A DNA stretch of 64,000 bases, taken from positions 248,001-312,000 of the IMG/VR virus record IMGVR_UViG_3300031957_002643; one strand, 5' to 3'. The first letter of the stretch is position 1. Each line of letters begins with the position of its first letter. A program made the position numbers and the translations under genes. Below the pieces are notes generated by a model. That model was given only the letters and a program-made list of their open reading frames with translations. It was not told the origin of the DNA and made no database searches. Positions 6,867 through 46,016 of the stretch are shown in pieces. This DNA comes from a virus.

Positions 6867-6942
6867 GGCCCCGTAGCTCAGCGGTTAGAGCAGATGCCTC
6901 TAAAACATTTGGTCGTGGGTTCGAATCCCACCGGGGCCACCA
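6867..6942 (+). tRNA. tRNA-Arg(TCT)
   Basis: Acceptor GGCCCCG/CGGGGCC, discriminator A, encoded CCA, anticodon loop CTCTAAA (TCT). The pair next to the anticodon loop is a C-A mismatch. Confidence 0.9.
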
Positions 6943-7282: not shown

Positions 7283-7708
7283 ATGACCTAGATCACTCGT
7301 GAAGAAATTCTGGAACGCAATGCGAATGACGTTTCGGATAACAATCTGTATATGTATGCTATCATTCGCAAAGACCTTGATATGCCTCCGGGAAAATTGG
7401 CTTCTCAAGCCGGTCATGCCTTCACTGATTCTCTCAGTGCCGCATTAGACCAAGACCCTGATCGCTACCACAACTACCGTCAAGGCGGTGGTGGTTCCAA
7501 AGTGGTCCTCAAGGCAAAAAGCGATCTCCAACTCATCAACACGTATAATCGCATTCTCGAACTCGGTATTCCGTGTGCGATGATTGTCGATCAGAAGCAC
7601 GTGATGCCTCCCCACTTTGACGGTTCTCCCGTCATCACGGCGCTGGGCATTGGTCCGTGTTATCGTGATGAGGTCCATCAAATCGTCAAAAAATATGGGT
7701 GCGTGTAA
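7283..7708 (+). CDS. Peptidyl-tRNA hydrolase PTH2 family, copy 1, amber at codon 3
   Basis: PTH2 enzymes release peptides from stalled peptidyl-tRNA. The domain starts at MYAIIRKDLDMPPGK (ATG 7352, 118 aa) and shows the family motif K-x-x-x-Q-x-GHA (KLASQAGHAF) and the conserved end TALGIGP. The strong ribosome site (AAAGGAG) serves ATG 7283 instead, which is in the same frame; codon 3 of that reading is TAG. The intervening 20 codons look like normal coding sequence (ITREEILERNANDVSDNN). Either the gene carries a nonsense codon and restarts at 7352, or the amber is read through, or ATG-ACC-TAG is a minimal regulatory ORF. No CTA-anticodon tRNA was found. The next gene overlaps as TAATG. Confidence 0.7.
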
Positions 7709-18669: not shown

Positions 18670-19085
18670 TGCCCGATTATCCCGTTCAGTACATTCTGAT
18701 GAGAAGCGATCTGGATTCAATGAATCCGGGCAAGGCAATGGCACAAGCTGCACATGCGTCAACCGTGATGACCCGTGCGTTTGAAAATACGCCATCTATG
18801 CCGCAGTATGATGATTATGTCGAATGGGTTAAAGCCACCAAGCAGGGCTTTGGGACGTGCATCGTTCTCGATGGCAAAAATGATGCTGTGTTGGATTACG
18901 TCACACGGGAAGCAATTCGCACCGGCATCTACGCTCAAATCATTCACGATCCGACTTATCCCGTTTCAGACGGTGGTGTTTGTCATCTGATCCCGGTTAA
19001 TACTTGTGTTGTTCTGTTTGGTATGAAATCACAGATGGACGCATTTTTTGGATCACTCATGATTAAATTGGAGCTTCACTCATGA
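18669..19085 (+). CDS. Peptidyl-tRNA hydrolase PTH2 family, copy 2
   Basis: 138 aa. YILMRSDLDSMNPGKAMAQA and AHAST correspond to the PTH2 motif (D-L-x-M-x-x-GK-x-x-A-Q-x-x-HA), and DGGVCHLIPVNTCVVLFG replaces the usual T-x-LGIGP end, so this is a divergent member. Overlaps the SLOG gene upstream (TGATG) and a membrane protein downstream (ATGA). Confidence 0.7.
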   Translation: MPDYPVQYILMRSDLDSMNPGKAMAQAAHASTVMTRAFENTPSMPQYDDYVEWVKATKQGFGTCIVLDGKNDAVLDYVTREAIRTGIYAQIIHDPTYPVSDGGVCHLIPVNTCVVLFGMKSQMDAFFGSLMIKLELHS

Positions 19086-28156: not shown

Positions 28157-28528
28157 TTAGATAAGCATTTTCAGGTTGCTTAGTGTTTCTTCACGGTCTG
28201 CCGGATCAATCGGACCAATTCCCAGACAGGTCACAGTCGGTTCATTGAATACAGTACGACCAGCATCTTTTACCAAAGATACACCACATTTCTTTTTGTA
28301 AAGATCAAATAACTCGAACAATTCTTTTGTGGTTTCAACTGCGAGTGTGATTTTCACTGCGGACTGGCTGTCCTTATATTGGGTTGCAAGTTCCGGTGTT
28401 CGTTCCAAAGCATCCCAATAAGCATGTAGGTAGGCATGCCCGGCTTGTGCGGCCAGTTTACCTCTGTTGCCGTTCATGGCCTTCAGTGCTTCTTTACTGA
28501 CGACACAATAGATTTTCAATTCACTCAT
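28157..28528 (-). CDS. Peptidyl-tRNA hydrolase PTH2 family, copy 3
   Basis: 123 aa from ATG 28528 (GAGGAG site). KIYCVVSKEALKAMNGNRGK, LAAQAGHAYLHA and TVTCLGIGPIDP match the PTH2 fold: the catalytic GK...AQ-x-GHA and the C-terminal LGIGP. It lies directly behind the Ro-like gene, separated by a very stable hairpin, which ties peptidyl-tRNA rescue to the Ro RNP. Confidence 0.82.
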   Translation of the reverse strand: MSELKIYCVVSKEALKAMNGNRGKLAAQAGHAYLHAYWDALERTPELATQYKDSQSAVKITLAVETTKELFELFDLYKKKCGVSLVKDAGRTVFNEPTVTCLGIGPIDPADREETLSNLKMLI

Positions 28529-28545
28529 TTTGGTCTCCTCATATG

Positions 28546-28569
28546 AGAATGGGGACCGAAGTCCCCATT
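28546..28569 (-). promoter_or_regulatory. UUCG hairpin between Ro and PTH2 genes
   Basis: On the minus strand GAATGGGGAC-TTCG-GTCCCCATTC: a perfect 10-bp stem with a C(UUCG)G tetraloop and no U-tract. More likely an RNA-stabilising or partial-attenuation element than a full terminator. Confidence 0.6.
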
Positions 28570-28578
28570 CCAATCAGC

Positions 28579-30195
28579 TTAGCGAACAAAGTCCGCCATA
28601 ACGTTTGGTGCATTGGAATCAAATCCAACAACGTCGAGCATGCCCGGATCATCAGGATTTGCAATCGTGAAGCCCGTTGAGGTCATGCCAACAACGATGA
28701 GCTTCGCATCGATGCCCATCTTGCGACGGTAATCACGAAGCGCTTCGTGTGGATGGATATTACCTGCCCAAGTTTCATTATCCGTGTAGATAACGAAAGC
28801 ATCAGCTTCGATCTTGTTTTCCATTGCGTAAAGCATTGGAGCAGCACAATCAGTTCCACCGAATGGAAGATTGCTGATCTTACGGATAACACCATCAAGT
28901 GTTGATGCACGACCAAAGTCAAGCGGAGTTACCGCATTAGAGCCACGGTAAGACGAATAACGCGAACCACTGGTAAAACCGACAGTGTGTGTAACTGGTT
29001 CGGTCTTCATAGTGATAAGTGCCATTGCCGCAGATGCGTCACGTGGCGTGATGTTTGAATTCATGATGTTCGAAAACGTCATAGAACCTGAAACATCAAG
29101 CGCAAGAAGATGACGCTTTCCAGTCGGAACAACATTCTTGAAAGAAAGCTTGAATGCATCTTCAAGTGCAGACACAATGTTTCCATTGACCTTCCACGTG
29201 TTGCTTCCACGGAAACCACGACCAGACTTATACGTTGTGAGTGCAAGAAGCACCGCAAACGGATGAATCATCGAATCGTGAAGCGTCTTCTGATCCGTGA
29301 GCCGACGAACTGCCTCCTGTTCAAACTTGGACATCGGCTTGAAAAGATTAATCTTTTCAGAAGACATGTTGCCAAGATTTTTGATCATAGCAGTCATCGG
29401 CATCTTTTCGAAAAGTGCTTCCCATACCTTTGGATCATTAAGAGCCTCGGTCGGAAGTGCTTCACGTGGAAGATTTGCTTCACGGATAAGGCCCGGAAGT
29501 TCCTTCACAGATGCAGTCTTTGCTTCTTCGTATGCCTTGATGATTGGCGGAAGCGTTTCGGTATCAACCGGGCGACCACAAATCCAATCAAAGATCACGC
29601 GACGTTCTGCTTCTGGCGTCTTTGGATGAGAAAGACGAAGAAGGTCACGGTGCGTCCAACCATCACGTTGACGATACTTGACCGCTTGGTAAGCGACCTT
29701 GTTTGCATCAACTTCGGTATACCAGTTCGCAACTGCACGCTTAAGCGCACGTCCCCAACCACGGAACTGTTCGACAAATTCCGCGTAATGGAAAAGATGC
29801 GTACCAATGCGTGCAACCTTTGGAAGTGCCGCGAGCGCATATGCACGAGTCTTGTCATCTTGTGCAGCCGAAGCCATAGCAAGAGCGAAAAGAGCAGCAT
29901 CATTACGGTATGCACGACCGTTCGTGGACACGTCAACAATCATATCGACAGCACGAATACCGTCAGAATCAATTGCCTTCTGTACTGCCGAAGCGTTAGC
30001 TACGGTAAGTTCACGAGACGATGCGTAGTAGGTTGGTGCATCAGAACCGAGCACAAGGAAGCGCTCAAGGCGACCGAACTCATCAAGTGTGAATGAGAAA
30101 CCGCCAGCATTGTTCTTGGATTGCTTTGGGGAAGCCGCTTCATTTTGCGGCGTAACGCGATTGCGCGTTCCAACATTACGGTAAGCTTTAGACAT
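28579..30195 (-). CDS. Ro60-like TROVE/vWA RNA-binding protein
   Basis: 538 aa, full length for the family. Residues 1-350 are the TROVE HEAT-repeat ring: the N-terminal TPQNEAASPKQSKNNAGGFS block, FHYAEFVEQFRGWGRALKRA, and YKSGRGFRGSNTWKVN before the vWA part. The vWA domain carries the MIDAS motif DVSGS (367-371), plus GGTDCAAPM and YTDNETW. Ro proteins bind misfolded RNAs through the ring and Y RNAs on its outer face; in bacteria Ro (Rsr) with a Y RNA tethers PNPase or takes part in rRNA/tRNA quality control. AAGGAGAAGGAAA ribosome site. Its leader holds two Y-RNA-like genes with tRNA mimics, and PTH2 follows, so this looks like a phage-borne Ro RNP operon. Confidence 0.93.
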   Translation of the reverse strand: MSKAYRNVGTRNRVTPQNEAASPKQSKNNAGGFSFTLDEFGRLERFLVLGSDAPTYYASSRELTVANASAVQKAIDSDGIRAVDMIVDVSTNGRAYRNDAALFALAMASAAQDDKTRAYALAALPKVARIGTHLFHYAEFVEQFRGWGRALKRAVANWYTEVDANKVAYQAVKYRQRDGWTHRDLLRLSHPKTPEAERRVIFDWICGRPVDTETLPPIIKAYEEAKTASVKELPGLIREANLPREALPTEALNDPKVWEALFEKMPMTAMIKNLGNMSSEKINLFKPMSKFEQEAVRRLTDQKTLHDSMIHPFAVLLALTTYKSGRGFRGSNTWKVNGNIVSALEDAFKLSFKNVVPTGKRHLLALDVSGSMTFSNIMNSNITPRDASAAMALITMKTEPVTHTVGFTSGSRYSSYRGSNAVTPLDFGRASTLDGVIRKISNLPFGGTDCAAPMLYAMENKIEADAFVIYTDNETWAGNIHPHEALRDYRRKMGIDAKLIVVGMTSTGFTIANPDDPGMLDVVGFDSNAPNVMADFVR

Positions 30196-30249
30196 TTTCC
30201 TTCTCCTTTACGTCTTTTGTGAACTAAGGATTAGGACGAGTCAAGAGGG

Positions 30250-30318
30250 TTGAATGAACATGTTAGTTGCGGTGGGTGTTTCATCGAAAAAGATAACCCA
30301 TTGCATCCGGCTCATTCA
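30250..30318 (-). repeat. Direct repeat R2, proximal to the Ro gene
   Basis: About 68 nt, matching R1 (30656-30724). The plus-strand core TTGAATGAACATGTTAGTTG is identical in both, as are AGATAACCCA and GCATCCGGCTCATTC. On the RNA strand TGGGT can pair with ACCCA, and GATGAA with TTCATT; both pairings also exist in R1. A repeated structured leader element is likely. Confidence 0.7.
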
Positions 30319-30327
30319 AATTTCATA

Positions 30328-30497
30328 CAGTTGTACCTTAGAAGGATGGACGTGTTTTTGAAAAACGACGTTTAGACGCTCTAACCGTTGAGCTACCGGC
30401 CCATAAATGGTGGGCCAGACAGGATTCGAACCTGTAACCTTCCCTTTGTAAGAGGATAACCGTCTCTCAGCCGGTCCATCCTTCTAAGATACAACTG
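30328..30497 (-). ncRNA. Y-RNA-like gene 2 with permuted tRNA mimic
   Basis: A 24-bp stem, perfect apart from one G-U, joins 30474-30497 and 30328-30351. Inside, in RNA order, come: an anticodon-stem-like helix (AGACG with CGTCT), an extra hairpin (TCCT-CTTACAA-AGGGA), a T arm (ACAGG-TTCGAAT-CCTGT), an acceptor-like hairpin CTGGCCC-ACCATTTAT-GGGCCGG, and a D arm GCTC-AACGGTTA-GAGC. So 3' and 5' tRNA halves are in swapped order and the acceptor is closed by a loop that still carries ACCA. This is the layout known for bacterial YrlA-type Y RNAs, whose tRNA-like module is circularly permuted. Position between promoter and Ro gene supports it. Confidence 0.8.
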
Positions 30498-30631
30498 GAC
30501 GAATGTGTTTGCGACTAGGGGGTGTTGAGACCAATGCTTCTACCAATTCAGCCACACCCAACAATGTGTTGAGTGACAGGATTCGAACCTGCACTTCTCG
30601 GTTTTGATAACCCTATGTCTCCGACTCGTCC
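30497..30631 (-). ncRNA. Y-RNA-like gene 1 with permuted tRNA mimic
   Basis: Second unit, directly upstream. Outer stem GGACGA/TCGTCC (30626-30631 with 30497-30502), then GAGAC/GTCTC, hairpin GGTT-ATCAA-AACC, T arm GCAGG-TTCGAAT-CCTGT, acceptor-like hairpin CACTCAAC-ACATT-GTTGGGTG (8 bp), and a D-like arm GGCTGAATTGGTAGAAGC. Same permuted order as gene 2 but different sequence and a shorter outer stem. The loop lacks CCA. Confidence 0.72.
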
Positions 30632-30655
30632 GAAATCTTTTGTTCCTCCCATTGA

Positions 30656-30724
30656 TTGAATGAACATGTTAGTTGTGATGGATGTTCATCATTACCAAGA
30701 TAACCCACCGCATCCGGCTCATTC
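30656..30724 (-). repeat. Direct repeat R1, upstream of Y-RNA-like gene 1
   Basis: Partner of R2, about 406 bp away. On the RNA strand TGGGT pairs with ATCCA (G-U where R2 has G-C) and ATGAACAT with ATGTTCAT, so the structure is kept while bases change. Confidence 0.7.
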
Positions 30725-30734
30725 GTTGTTCCGT

Positions 30735-30766
30735 GATATACTTATAGAGGATAATAGGGGTGTCAA
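30735..30766 (-). promoter_or_regulatory. Promoter of the Y-RNA/Ro/PTH2 transcript
   Basis: Minus-strand TTGACA (30761-30766). TATAAG follows 14 nt later (30741-30746) and AAGTAT at 17 nt, so the exact -10 is uncertain. Confidence 0.55.
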
Positions 30767-30801
30767 CCGGTTTTTTGTAAAAAATCGAAAATTTTTTGTA
30801 A

Positions 30802-30848: not shown

Positions 30849-30925
30849 AGCGGGGTGGAGCAGTCCGGTAGCTCGTCAGACTCATAATCTGAAGGTCGTA
30901 GGTTCAAATCCTGCCCCCGCACCCA
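30849..30925 (+). tRNA. Initiator-like tRNA-Met(CAT)
   Basis: Very close to bacterial tRNA-fMet: GCGGGG TG GAGC AGTCCGGTA GCTC, anticodon loop CTCATAA, T arm GTAGG-TTCAAAT-CCTGC, acceptor end CCCCGCA, then C and encoded CCA. Position 1 would be A opposite A72, an unpaired 1-72 as in initiators. The anticodon stem is TCAGA/TCTGA, lacking the three G-C pairs typical of initiators, so its use in initiation is uncertain. Confidence 0.85.
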
Positions 30926-32539: not shown

Positions 32540-32917
32540 ATGAAAATTGATCGTCTATTTGAAGAAACCGTGAAACTCTCCGACATGTATGATGTCGATG
32601 ATCTGCATGATGATGCAGAAATCCTGTATCATTACATCGATCCAGACCAGTTGGATGATGAATTCGAAGTTAAAGAATTATCTTTTGATGAAGCCAAGAA
32701 ATTAAAAACGCCTCGTGGTGATATGACTGTTTGGCAAGCGTATAAAGATCATGCGATGCCTGAACAGGAAGACATCATCAAAAAGAAATTGAAAAATTAT
32801 GATTCGGATCGAGTGATTGTTGTTTATGATGATCAGGTTTTAGACGGGAACCATCATTTGATTGCATCATTGAAACAAAAACTTGGCGTTCGCCTGATTG
32901 ATATTAAGACGATCTAA
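32540..32917 (+). CDS. ParB/sulfiredoxin-like protein with capsid-targeting-like N terminus
   Basis: 125 aa. MKIDRLFEETVKL supplies the L-F-E site. VIVVYDDQVLDGNHHLIASL near residue 95 is a ParB/Srx-type D-G-N-H-H core, shared with the gene at 11365. Leaderless arrangement with the late box. Convergent with the NADAR gene, overlapping by 14 nt. Confidence 0.62.
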   Translation: MKIDRLFEETVKLSDMYDVDDLHDDAEILYHYIDPDQLDDEFEVKELSFDEAKKLKTPRGDMTVWQAYKDHAMPEQEDIIKKKLKNYDSDRVIVVYDDQVLDGNHHLIASLKQKLGVRLIDIKTI

Positions 32918-33401
32918 TTTTCATCCACAATTCACCGAGCACATTGTACCCAACCCAATTATCACCTTCTCTGGCAGCGCCCCAAAACTTCCCGCTACCA
33001 TGAGGACGACTGGTGACATCTTCAATTAATCGTCTTTCTCCGGTTTCGGCCAACATATTCATGAGTTCTTCATGCTGTTGGACCTTCAACATCAAACACA
33101 GTTCCATGTTGTCGAGGTCTTCGGTGCCAGTTTGAAGAACAGTCATATGTTCGGCATTCCCTTTGGCGTAGAATTTTGCCGACATTGGAGACTTGATAGT
33201 CTTGAGATGCAGAAAGTGTTCACTTTCAAAAGGAAAGCGCATAGCCTGAAACAAATGTTCAGTCGTTGGAAATAGGTGATCTTTGTAAGTGACTGAAAAT
33301 GCAGCCATATTTTGCATCCAACCAAAAGGAAGTTTCACTTTAGTGAAAGCGATGTCATCTTCTTGGCATGGATTAATCGGGTAGTCTGTAAGTTTGCTCA
33401 T
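32904..33401 (-). CDS. NADAR (YbiA-like) family protein
   Basis: 165 aa from ATG 33401 (GGAAG site). LPFGWMQNMAAFSVTYKDH, FPTTEHLFQAMRF and NVLGELWMKIR are the family landmarks; a conserved Trp-Gly (FWGAAREGDNWVGYN) is also present. NADAR proteins act as N-glycosidases on modified ribosides or remove ADP-ribose from guanine, and are linked to NAD/ADP-ribose metabolism and to defence conflicts. Next to the NAD salvage genes here. Starts inside the end of the gene at 33373, so translationally coupled. Confidence 0.85.
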   Translation of the reverse strand: MSKLTDYPINPCQEDDIAFTKVKLPFGWMQNMAAFSVTYKDHLFPTTEHLFQAMRFPFESEHFLHLKTIKSPMSAKFYAKGNAEHMTVLQTGTEDLDNMELCLMLKVQQHEELMNMLAETGERRLIEDVTSRPHGSGKFWGAAREGDNWVGYNVLGELWMKIRSS

Positions 33402-33819
33402 CGTTTTCTTCCATGAAATTAAAAATTCGGTCGGACCAGTAGTCATCGAATGATGCAAGAGTCCGTGTAAGCTTATATACAGCAGTTGTCAATGCGTCAT
33501 AATCTTTTGCCTTCCAACTTGTATATGTGCGAGCACAAAGACCAAGTATAGACATAGTATAAGCTAATGGGTTATCTTTATTATTTCGATCTTCAATTTC
33601 TTTTTTGACCAATTCAAAACGGTCTTCTGTTGTGAAATGGCTTTCATTGTTTGCCGCAATGCGGAGTGCACAATGAAGCGTCAGGTCAACCAAAATCTGT
33701 CTGCGAAAATTAGAACATCCATAGATGATTTTTCTTATTTCTTCCTTTGGATCAAATAATTGTTTGATTTCATTATCCAAATCGTCGAGGTCAATATCTA
33801 TGTCGATTTCATTTTCCAT
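33373..33819 (-). CDS. Hypothetical helical protein
   Basis: 148 aa from ATG 33819. Acidic start (MENEIDIDIDLDDLDNEI), then helices. Unrecognised. Operon partner of the NADAR gene. Confidence 0.62.
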   Translation of the reverse strand: MENEIDIDIDLDDLDNEIKQLFDPKEEIRKIIYGCSNFRRQILVDLTLHCALRIAANNESHFTTEDRFELVKKEIEDRNNKDNPLAYTMSILGLCARTYTSWKAKDYDALTTAVYKLTRTLASFDDYWSDRIFNFMEENDEQTYRLPD

Positions 33820-33848: not shown

Positions 33849-33877
33849 TTGACAAAAGAAATCGAAACACCTATAAG
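33849..33877 (+). promoter_or_regulatory. sigma70-like promoter of the NAD salvage operon
   Basis: TTGACA (33849-33854), 17 nt, TATAAG (33872-33877). The leader that follows has a small GCACC/GGTGC hairpin at about 33890-33905. Confidence 0.85.
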
Positions 33878-33933
33878 TATGCATAACGAAGCACCGCCGA
33901 AGGTGCATTGACGATAGTAGCGTGGAGTATGCT

Positions 33934-35067
33934 ATGCCTGTGAATGGAAAACCATCCATCCGTGATGGGTTCGTGAAAACGAATACACTCGGATATGAAG
34001 AAGAATACGATTACCTCGTATTCATTGGAAGATTTCAACCTCTCCATTACGGGCATATGCGTGTCATTGACATTGCGCTACAACTCTCCAAAAAAGTAGT
34101 TCTGCTCGTTGGTTCGTCCAATGTTGGTCGCACCCTGCGTAACCCGTTCACTTTTCAAGAACGTTACGCCATGATCGCAACACAATACGATCATGCCATC
34201 AAGGATGGTCGTCTCATCATCGACTCAATCGATGATATGATGTATGAAGATGACCGCTGGATCGAGCAGGTTCAGACCAAAGTCAACAGCAAAGTTGGCG
34301 ATACCAAAAATGTCGGTCTGATTGGATGTGAGAAAGATCACACCAGTTATTATCTCAGCCTCTTCCCGAACTGGCATAATGTCGGTGTGGAATTCAAGGT
34401 TCCACTCAACAGTACCGATATCCGCAAGGCTGTGTTCCTTCAGGACAAGCTCTGGGATGATCGTGGTTTTGGTGAAACGCAACATGCCAAGAATGAATTC
34501 TACAAATTCTTGGACAAGGCGTGCCCGCCAGAAATCGCTCAAATCCTTCACGCATTTATGTACAATCCAACAGCAGAAGAAATTCGTGAAGAATGGAAGT
34601 GGATCAATGAATATCGTGCAAAGCGCCAGACCAGCAATTATCCGGTGATTGATATCACTGTTGATGCCTGCGTGGTTCAATCTGGTCATGTTCTGGTTGT
34701 TCGCCGCAAGAATTATCCGGGCAAAGGTCTTCTTGCCCTTCCGGGTGGTTTCTTGAATGAAAACGAAATTCGCGAGAAGGGCATGCTTCGTGAATTGCGA
34801 GAAGAAACTTGCATCGATCTCTCGGATACTGTCCTTCGCGCAAATATCGTGAAAGAAAAAGTTTTCGAAGACCCACACCGTTCAGATCGTGGTCGTCTGA
34901 TTACGACTGCATATCTGATCAAACTTCAGGATCGCCCGGAACTTCCCAAGGTGAAGGGTGCTGATGATGCAGAGAAAGCATTCTGGTTGCCATTGTCCGA
35001 AGTAAAACCTTCGATCTTCTTTGAAGACCATGGATTCATTATCCGAAATCTCACGAGCGGAATCTAA
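33934..35067 (+). CDS. nadM: Bifunctional NMN adenylyltransferase/Nudix hydrolase
   Basis: 377 aa. N-terminal nucleotidyltransferase: YLVFIGRFQPLHYGH, with the H-x-G-H site at 38-41, VLLVGSSN, and the late STDIRKA (ISSTxxR-like) motif. C-terminal Nudix domain with LPGGFLNENE then REKGMLRELREETC, matching G-x5-E-x7-R-E-U-x-E-E. The first half joins NMN and ATP to NAD; the second likely hydrolyses ADP-ribose. This fusion is known from cyanobacteria and many large phages. Start ATG 33934 (GGAG); GTG 33922 is less likely. Operon with NadV. Confidence 0.92.
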   Translation: MPVNGKPSIRDGFVKTNTLGYEEEYDYLVFIGRFQPLHYGHMRVIDIALQLSKKVVLLVGSSNVGRTLRNPFTFQERYAMIATQYDHAIKDGRLIIDSIDDMMYEDDRWIEQVQTKVNSKVGDTKNVGLIGCEKDHTSYYLSLFPNWHNVGVEFKVPLNSTDIRKAVFLQDKLWDDRGFGETQHAKNEFYKFLDKACPPEIAQILHAFMYNPTAEEIREEWKWINEYRAKRQTSNYPVIDITVDACVVQSGHVLVVRRKNYPGKGLLALPGGFLNENEIREKGMLRELREETCIDLSDTVLRANIVKEKVFEDPHRSDRGRLITTAYLIKLQDRPELPKVKGADDAEKAFWLPLSEVKPSIFFEDHGFIIRNLTSGI

Positions 35068-45857: not shown

Positions 45858-45931
45858 GCGGGTGTAGCTCAATGGTAGAGCCACTGCCTTCCAAGCAGAA
45901 GACGAGAGTTCGATTCTCTCCATCCGCTCCA
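45858..45931 (+). tRNA. tRNA-Gly(TCC)
   Basis: Acceptor GCGGGTG/CATCCGC, discriminator T, encoded CCA, anticodon loop CTTCCAA (TCC). Confidence 0.93.
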
Positions 45932-45940
45932 AACATTCAT

Positions 45941-46016
45941 GGCGCTGTAGCTCAGTTGGCAGAGCAGGAGACTCATATTCTCTGTGTCGGCGGTTCGATC
46001 CCGTCCAGCGCTACCA
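45941..46016 (+). tRNA. tRNA-Met or tRNA-Ile2 (CAT)
   Basis: Acceptor GGCGCTG/CAGCGCT, discriminator A, encoded CCA, anticodon loop CTCATAT (CAT). Third CAT tRNA here; one of them may be the lysidine-modified Ile2. Confidence 0.9.

What the first reader, a model, noticed from the sequence alone, without database searches (positions are those of the whole stretch)
28157..30770. Phage-borne Ro RNP operon: two Y-RNA-like genes with circularly permuted tRNA mimics, Ro60-like protein and PTH2
The leader of the Ro-like gene contains two adjacent RNA units in which the T arm comes first, then an acceptor-like hairpin closed by a loop, then a D arm. One loop still carries ACCA, and one outer stem is 24 bp with a single G-U. 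That is the plan of YrlA-type bacterial Y RNAs, which bind Ro and mimic tRNA. A peptidyl-tRNA hydrolase gene follows the Ro gene. Seen directly: order of arms, stems, TROVE/vWA motifs, operon. Inferred: that the phage runs its own Ro RNP, perhaps to sort, trap or protect tRNAs during infection.
Basis: partly seen in the sequence, partly recalled or inferred. Interest (0 to 1): 0.92.

Follow-up and report, generated by a model that had tools for sequence, protein, structure and literature searches.

The report
Jumbo-phage Ro protein with four Y RNAs
A giant bacteriophage carries a gene for the RNA-quality-control protein Ro60 and, just in front of it, four small structured RNAs built to bind that protein, two of which imitate transfer RNAs; it is a clear and rich example of a kind of RNA-protein machine already reported from bacteria and some phages.

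Summary
The leader of a full-length Ro60/Rsr gene (28579-30195, minus) holds four Y RNA units, not two: two plain hairpins (30724-30658, 30319-30250) flank two tRNA-mimicking units (30631-30497, 30483-30342). In the mimics, T arm, hairpin-closed acceptor stem and D arm follow in that order, and the Ro-binding stem stands where the anticodon arm would be.

Relatives support the structure: 32 of 34 pairs show double compensatory changes over 67 units (0 of 500 shuffles as good). The closest relative has the same block with five units. Bacterial Ro loci share the plan. In this 335-kb record the plain-hairpin model matches only here. The leader shares its -10 element with tRNA genes.

The PTH2 link is not supported: three PTH2 genes lie in this genome, and the nearest relative has none beside Ro. 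Rfam's YrlA cut-off is not reached (40.5 bits against 69), so Rfam membership fails while the architecture is met.

Likely function: a phage-encoded Ro RNP acting in trans, its Y RNAs gating or tethering Ro to a nuclease and presenting tRNA mimics (inferred). Published work already reports phage Y RNAs: new member of a known kind.

The parts
30741..30766 (-). Promoter-like site: TTGACA (30766-30761) and TATAAGTAT (-10 from 30746), 22 bases before the first Y hairpin
   Evidence: 8 TATAAGTA sites in the window on both strands; 5 lie 17-26 bases upstream of tRNA genes, one is this site; consensus match only, no transcript data
30658..30724 (-). Y1: plain Y RNA hairpin with motif GCCGGAUG...GGGUUAUC...CAACUAACAUG
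   Evidence: RF01656 28.8 bits; model R1 58.7 bits, one of only two matches in the 335,552-base record; covariation of A3
30497..30631 (-). Unit A: tRNA-like Y RNA with a Leu-type D arm
   Evidence: model R2 74.7 bits (trained on it); RF02553 only 15.1 bits, E 4.2; covariation of A2 and A4
30536..30592 (-). tRNA-like module of unit A: T arm, acceptor hairpin CACTCAA/TTGGGTG, D arm TGGCTGAATTGGTAGAAGC
30328..30497 (-). Unit B with its extended 24-bp outer stem (30497-30474 with 30351-30328, one G-U)
30342..30483 (-). Unit B core: tRNA-like Y RNA with class I D arm and ACCA in the acceptor loop
   Evidence: RF02553 YrlA 40.5 bits, E 1.9e-7, below the gathering score 69; R2 114.5 bits
30378..30435 (-). 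tRNA-like module of unit B: T arm, acceptor hairpin CTGGCCC-ACCATTTAT-GGGCCGG, D arm TAGCTCAACGGTTAGAGC
30250..30319 (-). Y2: plain Y RNA hairpin
   Evidence: RF01656 35.8 bits, E 1.4e-5; R1 61.8 bits; folds better than all 200 shuffles
28579..30195 (-). Ro60/Rsr protein, 538 aa
   Evidence: Pfam; phmmer to Deinococcus Rsr 2nvo, E 5.3e-121 over residues 10-538; MIDAS-type residues D367, S369, S371, T448, D472 invariant in 14 Ro proteins
28547..28570 (-). 10-bp hairpin with UUCG loop between the Ro and PTH2 genes, no U run after it
   Evidence: sequence, read directly
28157..28528 (-). PTH2, next gene downstream; probably a chance neighbour
   Evidence: Pfam PTH2 1.4e-19; adjacency not conserved

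Best explanation
This is a phage-encoded Ro ribonucleoprotein operon. One transcript from a tRNA-like promoter carries four Y RNAs and the Ro (Rsr) message. Shown by sequence comparison: each unit has the same conserved stem (outer helix, GYCGGA / UUAUC on the 5' side, CAnnnACAYG on the 3' side), and two units carry a permuted tRNA module on that stem in place of the anticodon arm. Inferred: the units are cut out, bind the outside of the Ro ring through that stem, and work in trans. The plain units gate or tether, as DrY RNA does for PNPase in Deinococcus; the tRNA mimics dock tRNA-binding enzymes or divert tRNA-cutting nucleases. The complex then tunes RNA decay and tRNA quality during infection of a host by a phage that brings many tRNAs of its own.
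For: Full-length Ro. Four units in the leader. Covariation: 28 of 34 pairs in 30 units I picked from 53 candidates; 17 of 19 in 26 plain hairpins; 32 of 34 in all 67 model matches at E up to 1e-10, from 47 of 90 sources. Own-flank pairing of outer stems 50 of 60 against 25% for flanks swapped between loci. Strand: 120 of 120 R1 matches and 181 of 182 R2 matches lie on the Ro strand (these include training units, and some R2 matches are tandem tRNAs). Closest relative L082 (Ro 75% identical) has three plain and two tRNA-like units with one acceptor capped by UUCG. Trans action: 10 of 67 R2 matches lie downstream of the Ro gene, counted. Promoter shared with tRNA genes.
Against: No transcript, processing or binding data. 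Rfam cut-offs for RF02553 and RF01656 are not reached. No RNA unit was found beside Ro in several Ro-bearing jumbo phages (L068, L081, L090, L095, L099 and others gave no R1 or R2 match). No search was made for a phage or host PNPase; RtcB is absent from this record. The mechanism after binding is inference.
Confidence: 0.72

Rival explanations
1. Genuine circularly permuted tRNA genes whose halves are rejoined to give working tRNAs.
For: Order 3' half then 5' half, ACCA directly after the acceptor strand in unit B and in L082 unit A.
Against: No anticodon stem-loop: its place is taken by the covarying Y stem. Many relatives close the acceptor with short loops such as UUCG or GAAA and lack CCA. 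ARAGORN calls no tRNA here; Rfam tRNA gives 26.9 bits, below 29, on a misaligned frame.
Confidence: 0.03
2. A cis-acting leader only: the folds regulate translation or decay of the Ro message (autoregulation), without free Y RNAs.
For: All four units lie in the 5' leader. In the window and in L082 the 5' arm of unit A has a second complementary stretch close to the Ro start (GACTCGTCC at 30243-30235; 7 or more bases in 3 of 51 units, control 1.3%).
Against: Units occur downstream of Ro or inside tRNA clusters in other phages and bacteria (10 of 67 strong phage matches downstream). The second-arm signal is weak (12 of 51 at 6 or more against 7.5%).
Confidence: 0.12
3. Remains of tandem tRNA genes that look permuted by chance.
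For: R2 and RF02553 do hit tandem tRNAs: window 45887-45973 and the 136-kb site of this record.
Against: Those artefacts score 20-29 bits and lack the Y stem; the leader units score 74.7 and 114.5, with covarying acceptor hairpins and Y stems.
Confidence: 0.02
4. The PTH2 neighbour is part of the machine, so that the RNP sorts peptidyl-tRNAs.
For: PTH2 follows Ro on the same strand; PTH2 is common in these jumbo phages (11 of 16 records).
Against: 1 of 94 Ro loci has a PTH2 nearby; in G001 the PTH2 genes are far from Ro; three PTH2 genes here.
Confidence: 0.06

Closest known systems
Bacterial Rsr / YrlA-YrlB operons (Salmonella rsr-yrlBA-rtcBA; PMC7790460, passages read)
   Same: Ro gene with adjacent plain and tRNA-like Y RNAs
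   Different: No RtcB in this record; four units instead of two; borne by a phage; YrlA cut-off of Rfam not reached
Deinococcus radiodurans Rsr-DrY-PNPase (RYPER; described in PMC4726728 and PMC8058203, passages read)
   Same: Ro protein 2nvo is the best solved match; Y RNA beside Ro
   Different: Tethering to a nuclease is not tested here; two units carry tRNA modules
Phage Y RNAs: mycobacteriophages (Chen et al. 2014, not held, known only through citations in PMC12282133) and Ro in jumbo phage pir03 (PMC7765460, passages read)
   Same: Phage Ro with Y RNAs mimicking tRNA
   Different: Another phage lineage; here the unit array, both mimic types and covariation are laid out
Listeria phage CKA15 (PMC12282133, passages read)
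   Same: Rsr homologue with very abundant transcripts within 2 kb upstream, suspected by its authors to be Y RNAs; promoters with TTGAC 15 bases before TATAMT
   Different: My models find no convincing Y RNA in its relative P100, and Pfam TROVE does not match there
Nematode stem-bulge RNAs, RF01656 (homologues of vertebrate Y RNAs; PMC4450293, PMC4726728, passages read)
   Same: UUAUC loop motif, CCGGA 5' strand, CAAC-UUGAC-like 3' strand; best Rfam match of all five plain hairpins of the window and L082
   Different: Below the gathering score (35.8 at best against 38)

Membership tests
Ro60/Rsr proteins | TROVE HEAT-repeat domain plus vWA domain over the full length | tested here: met
Ro60/Rsr proteins | MIDAS-type metal residues D-x-S-x-S ... 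T ... D (motif recalled) | tested here: met
   D367, S369, S371, T448, D472 invariant in alignment A1
Ro60/Rsr proteins | Binds Y RNA | not testable with these tools
YrlA-type tRNA-like Y RNAs (as an architecture) | T arm, loop-closed acceptor stem, D arm, in that order, on a Ro-binding stem | tested here: met
YrlA-type tRNA-like Y RNAs (as an architecture) | Encoded next to a Ro gene | tested here: met
YrlA-type tRNA-like Y RNAs (as an architecture) | Carries tRNA modifications and is bound by tRNA enzymes | not testable with these tools
   no RNA data
Rfam RF02553 YrlA | Score at or above the gathering cut-off (69 bits) | tested here: not met
   40.5 bits for unit B, 15.1 for unit A; 0 of 34 phage records reach it
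Rfam RF01656 nematode sbRNA | Score at or above the gathering cut-off (38 bits) | tested here: not met
   35.8 and 28.8 bits
Permuted or ordinary tRNA genes | An anticodon stem-loop | tested here: not met
RYPER-type degradation complex | PNPase tethered to Ro by Y RNA | not tested
   no search for PNPase was made; needs co-purification
Ro-PTH2 functional operon | Conserved adjacency of PTH2 and Ro | tested here: not met

The most novel reading that the evidence does not exclude
The phage brings a multi-RNA Ro complex as part of its tRNA programme. Two different tRNA mimics (one with a Leu-type, one with a class I D arm), driven by a promoter like those of its tRNA genes, act as decoys or nuclease guides against host defences that cut or disable tRNAs, possibly entering with the virion (a Ro homologue was reported among the virion proteins of Listeria phage CKA15). 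A second, separable reading: plain phage and bacterial Y RNAs share a homologous core including UUAUC with nematode stem-bulge RNAs, so the motif would be older than its known role in animal DNA replication.
Probability: 0.2. Interest if true: 0.8.

Novelty: new member of a known kind. Interest (0 to 1): 0.47.

Why it matters
Phage Ro genes are common (345 of 50,697 phage records), but what the complex does in infection is unknown. This locus and its relatives give exact, covariation-supported boundaries for the RNAs and covariance models that find them, so northern blots, deletions and pull-downs become straightforward in laboratory phages such as Sparky or Sixama. The shared UUAUC core links phage, bacterial and nematode Y RNAs and can be tested.

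Tried and rejected
PTH2 as partner: rejected. RtcB-style repair operon: RtcB absent; two RNA-ligase genes over the cut-off elsewhere in the record, no link to Ro shown. Further Y RNAs elsewhere in the record: the RF02553 and R2 matches at 136 kb and at window 45.9 kb are adjacent tRNAs or tRNA-like remnants. A Ro-proximal switch: weak signal. Single-sequence relatives search: nothing. The 15-base motif scan gave 66 viral loci that I did not use: the word is short. First version of my module finder had a wrong D-arm spacing and was corrected. Listeria P100 as a test of the CKA15 Y RNA idea: no R1 match; R2 best E 0.002, at positions inside annotated tRNA genes; no TROVE match; inconclusive, as no known positive of that lineage was at hand.

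Selection to bear in mind: A2 holds 30 of 53 candidates, picked by eye for clean length; A3 holds 25 of 45 candidates plus one that my script missed (L082:2854-2936); outer stems were required to pair, the other helices were not. A4 is fitted to model R2. Five near-duplicate loci (L083, L104, L112, L122, L145) were left out; one search counts them. In one search, 60 of 67 units had enough flank. The search for related loci kept 80 of 341 viral and 80 of 239 cellular loci; a Ro ORF was found in 79 of the 80 cellular ones.
Full report
What was checked. The window is bases 248001-312000 of a 335,552-base virus record. On its minus strand a 538-residue protein (28579-30195) has Pfam TROVE and vWA_Ro60 domains and aligns over residues 10-538 with Deinococcus Rsr, 2nvo, E 5.3e-121. 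PTH2 follows (28157-28528). Between the divergent tRNA-Met (30849-30925) and the Ro start lies a structured leader, z -4.80, 0 of 100 shuffles as good.

Anatomy. The leader holds four units. Y1 (30724-30658) and Y2 (30319-30250) are plain hairpins. Rfam's best match to both is RF01656, a nematode stem-bulge RNA: 28.8 and 35.8 bits, E 0.001 and 1.4e-5, gathering score 38. Unit A (30631-30497) and unit B (30483-30342, with the outer stem extended to 24 bp by 30497-30474 and 30351-30328) carry T arm, hairpin-closed acceptor stem and D arm in that order. Unit B matches RF02553 YrlA at 40.5 bits, E 1.9e-7; unit A only at 15.1 bits; the gathering score is 69.

The common core. All units share an outer helix, then GYCGGA, an inner helix, GGUUAUC (or UUACC in relatives), and on the 3' side CAnnnACAYG before the outer strand. 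In A and B the tRNA module sits on this core where a tRNA would have its anticodon arm. Unit A has a Leu-type D arm (its 5' half resembles the phage's own tRNA-Leu genes best, as does that of L082 unit A); unit B has a class I D arm. Against unit A being Leu-derived, its 3' half matches no Leu gene best.

Relatives. 345 of 50,697 phage records have a Ro relative. Two near-identical IMG/VR contigs, L082 and L083, have a Ro 75% identical. Their leader shows the same order (divergent tRNA-Met, Y array, Ro) with five units: three plain and two tRNA-like, one acceptor closed by UUCG. A script for permuted modules found 52 in 42 of 94 leaders (about 148 kb) and 9 in 1.07 Mb of the rest. Of 79 cellular Ro loci, 30 leaders hold such a module by the same script, and R2 gives 116 matches at E up to 1e-6 over the 80 cellular loci, all on the Ro strand (12 of the 30 training units are cellular).

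Covariation. Outer arms pair with their own partner (score 6 or more) in 50 of 60 units against 25% of flanks swapped between loci. In A2 (30 tRNA-like units) 28 of 34 pairs have double changes; in A3 (26 plain units) 17 of 19. On cells paired and on the covariation score no shuffle of 500 reached the observed value, and slid controls fall to 35-48% paired against 94.3% and 90.3%; for A3 one shuffle of 500 reached the count of pairs with a double change. In A4, all 67 model matches at E up to 1e-10 from 47 of 90 sources, it is 32 of 34; A4 is fitted to the model, so it leans that way.

Specificity. R1 (plain units) has 120 matches at E up to 0.1 in 90 sources, all on the Ro strand, and in this record only two at E up to 1, Y1 and Y2. 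R2 has 182 matches at E up to 0.01, 181 on the Ro strand; the exception, window 45887-45973, is two adjacent tRNA genes, and some other weak matches fall in tRNA clusters too. Both models were trained partly on these loci.

Transcription. TATAAGTA occurs eight times on the two strands of the window; five sites lie 17-26 bases upstream of tRNA genes, and one, at 30746 on the minus strand with TTGACA before it, lies 22 bases before Y1. So the leader seems to use the promoter type of the phage's stable RNAs. This is a consensus match, not a transcript.

PTH2. In the closest relative the PTH2 genes are away from Ro, the nearest about 8.5 kb off on the other strand. A PTH2 homologue appears in the ORFs of 1 of 94 related loci. 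This record has three PTH2 genes, all inside the window. The adjacency looks accidental.

How it most likely works. Shown: a complete Ro gene and four covarying Y units in one leader. From established knowledge of the family (passages in PMC4726728, PMC7790460, PMC8058203): Y RNAs bind Ro through the lower stem, gate it, and in Deinococcus tether it to PNPase; [quoted passage not shown] Inferred: the phage units are released and act in trans. In favour, 10 of 67 strong matches in relatives lie downstream of Ro (counted), some inside tRNA clusters, where a leader switch would make no sense. The phage carries 17 tRNA genes in this window, and RNA ligases elsewhere in the record, which fits a tRNA-centred programme but proves nothing.

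Novelty. Chen et al. 2014, Sim and Wolin 2018 and the structural work on YrlA are not held (tried; what I know of their content is recalled or comes from citations). PMC12282133 states that Y RNAs have been identified bioinformatically in mycobacteriophages, and PMC7765460 that several phages have YrlA-like tRNA mimics. Hence a new member of a known kind. Four to five units with two mimic types is a rich case, but arrays of several units are usual among these relatives (for example L138, L115 and L150). In the searches made I saw no paper that joins bacterial or phage Y RNAs to the nematode UUAUC core; PMC4726728 calls bacterial Y RNAs not homologous with the vertebrate clades. Four of eight further loci tested gave no RF01656 match at E up to 0.05, four matches came from three loci (L142, L173, L250), so that link is suggestive only.

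Noticed in passing
window 7349-7696 (+), 18684-19058 (+), 28163-28516 (-): Three PTH2 genes within one 64-kb stretch; related jumbo phages carry two or three each. Why a phage needs several is unexplained.
   Followed up: partly
window 6867-6942 (+): tRNA with anticodon CTA (amber suppressor type; ARAGORN labels it Pyl). TAG still ends 9 of 45 ATG-started ORFs of 150 or more residues, so no sign of general recoding.
   Followed up: partly
window 30746 (-), 2826, 27373, 30825, 45841, 53119 (+): Shared -10 element TATAAGTA before tRNA genes and the Y RNA leader; two more at 33872 and 48809 (+) have no tRNA behind them.
   Followed up: partly
L166 403-480 (-), record position about 136.7 kb: A tRNA-Ala-like sequence with a disordered 5' half directly before a normal tRNA-Ala; weak tmRNA match of 21.3 bits.
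   Followed up: no
window 30243-30235 (-) and L082 near 2950: A second copy of the 3' arm of unit A close to the Ro start in both phages, able to pair with the 5' arm of unit A; possible switch, weak statistics.
   Followed up: partly
window 32904-33458 (-) and 33922-35067 (+): NADAR gene and a nucleotidyltransferase-NUDIX fusion, suggesting NAD metabolism beside the Ro operon.
   Followed up: no
L069 4687-5047: Gordonia phage GMA2: a Y RNA match and a Pistol ribozyme match on either side of tRNA-Trp, just after a tmRNA, inside a tRNA cluster downstream of Ro.
   Followed up: no
L068, L081, L090, L095, L099-L102: Jumbo phages with Ro but no R1 or R2 match nearby: Y RNAs lost, elsewhere or too divergent.
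   Followed up: no
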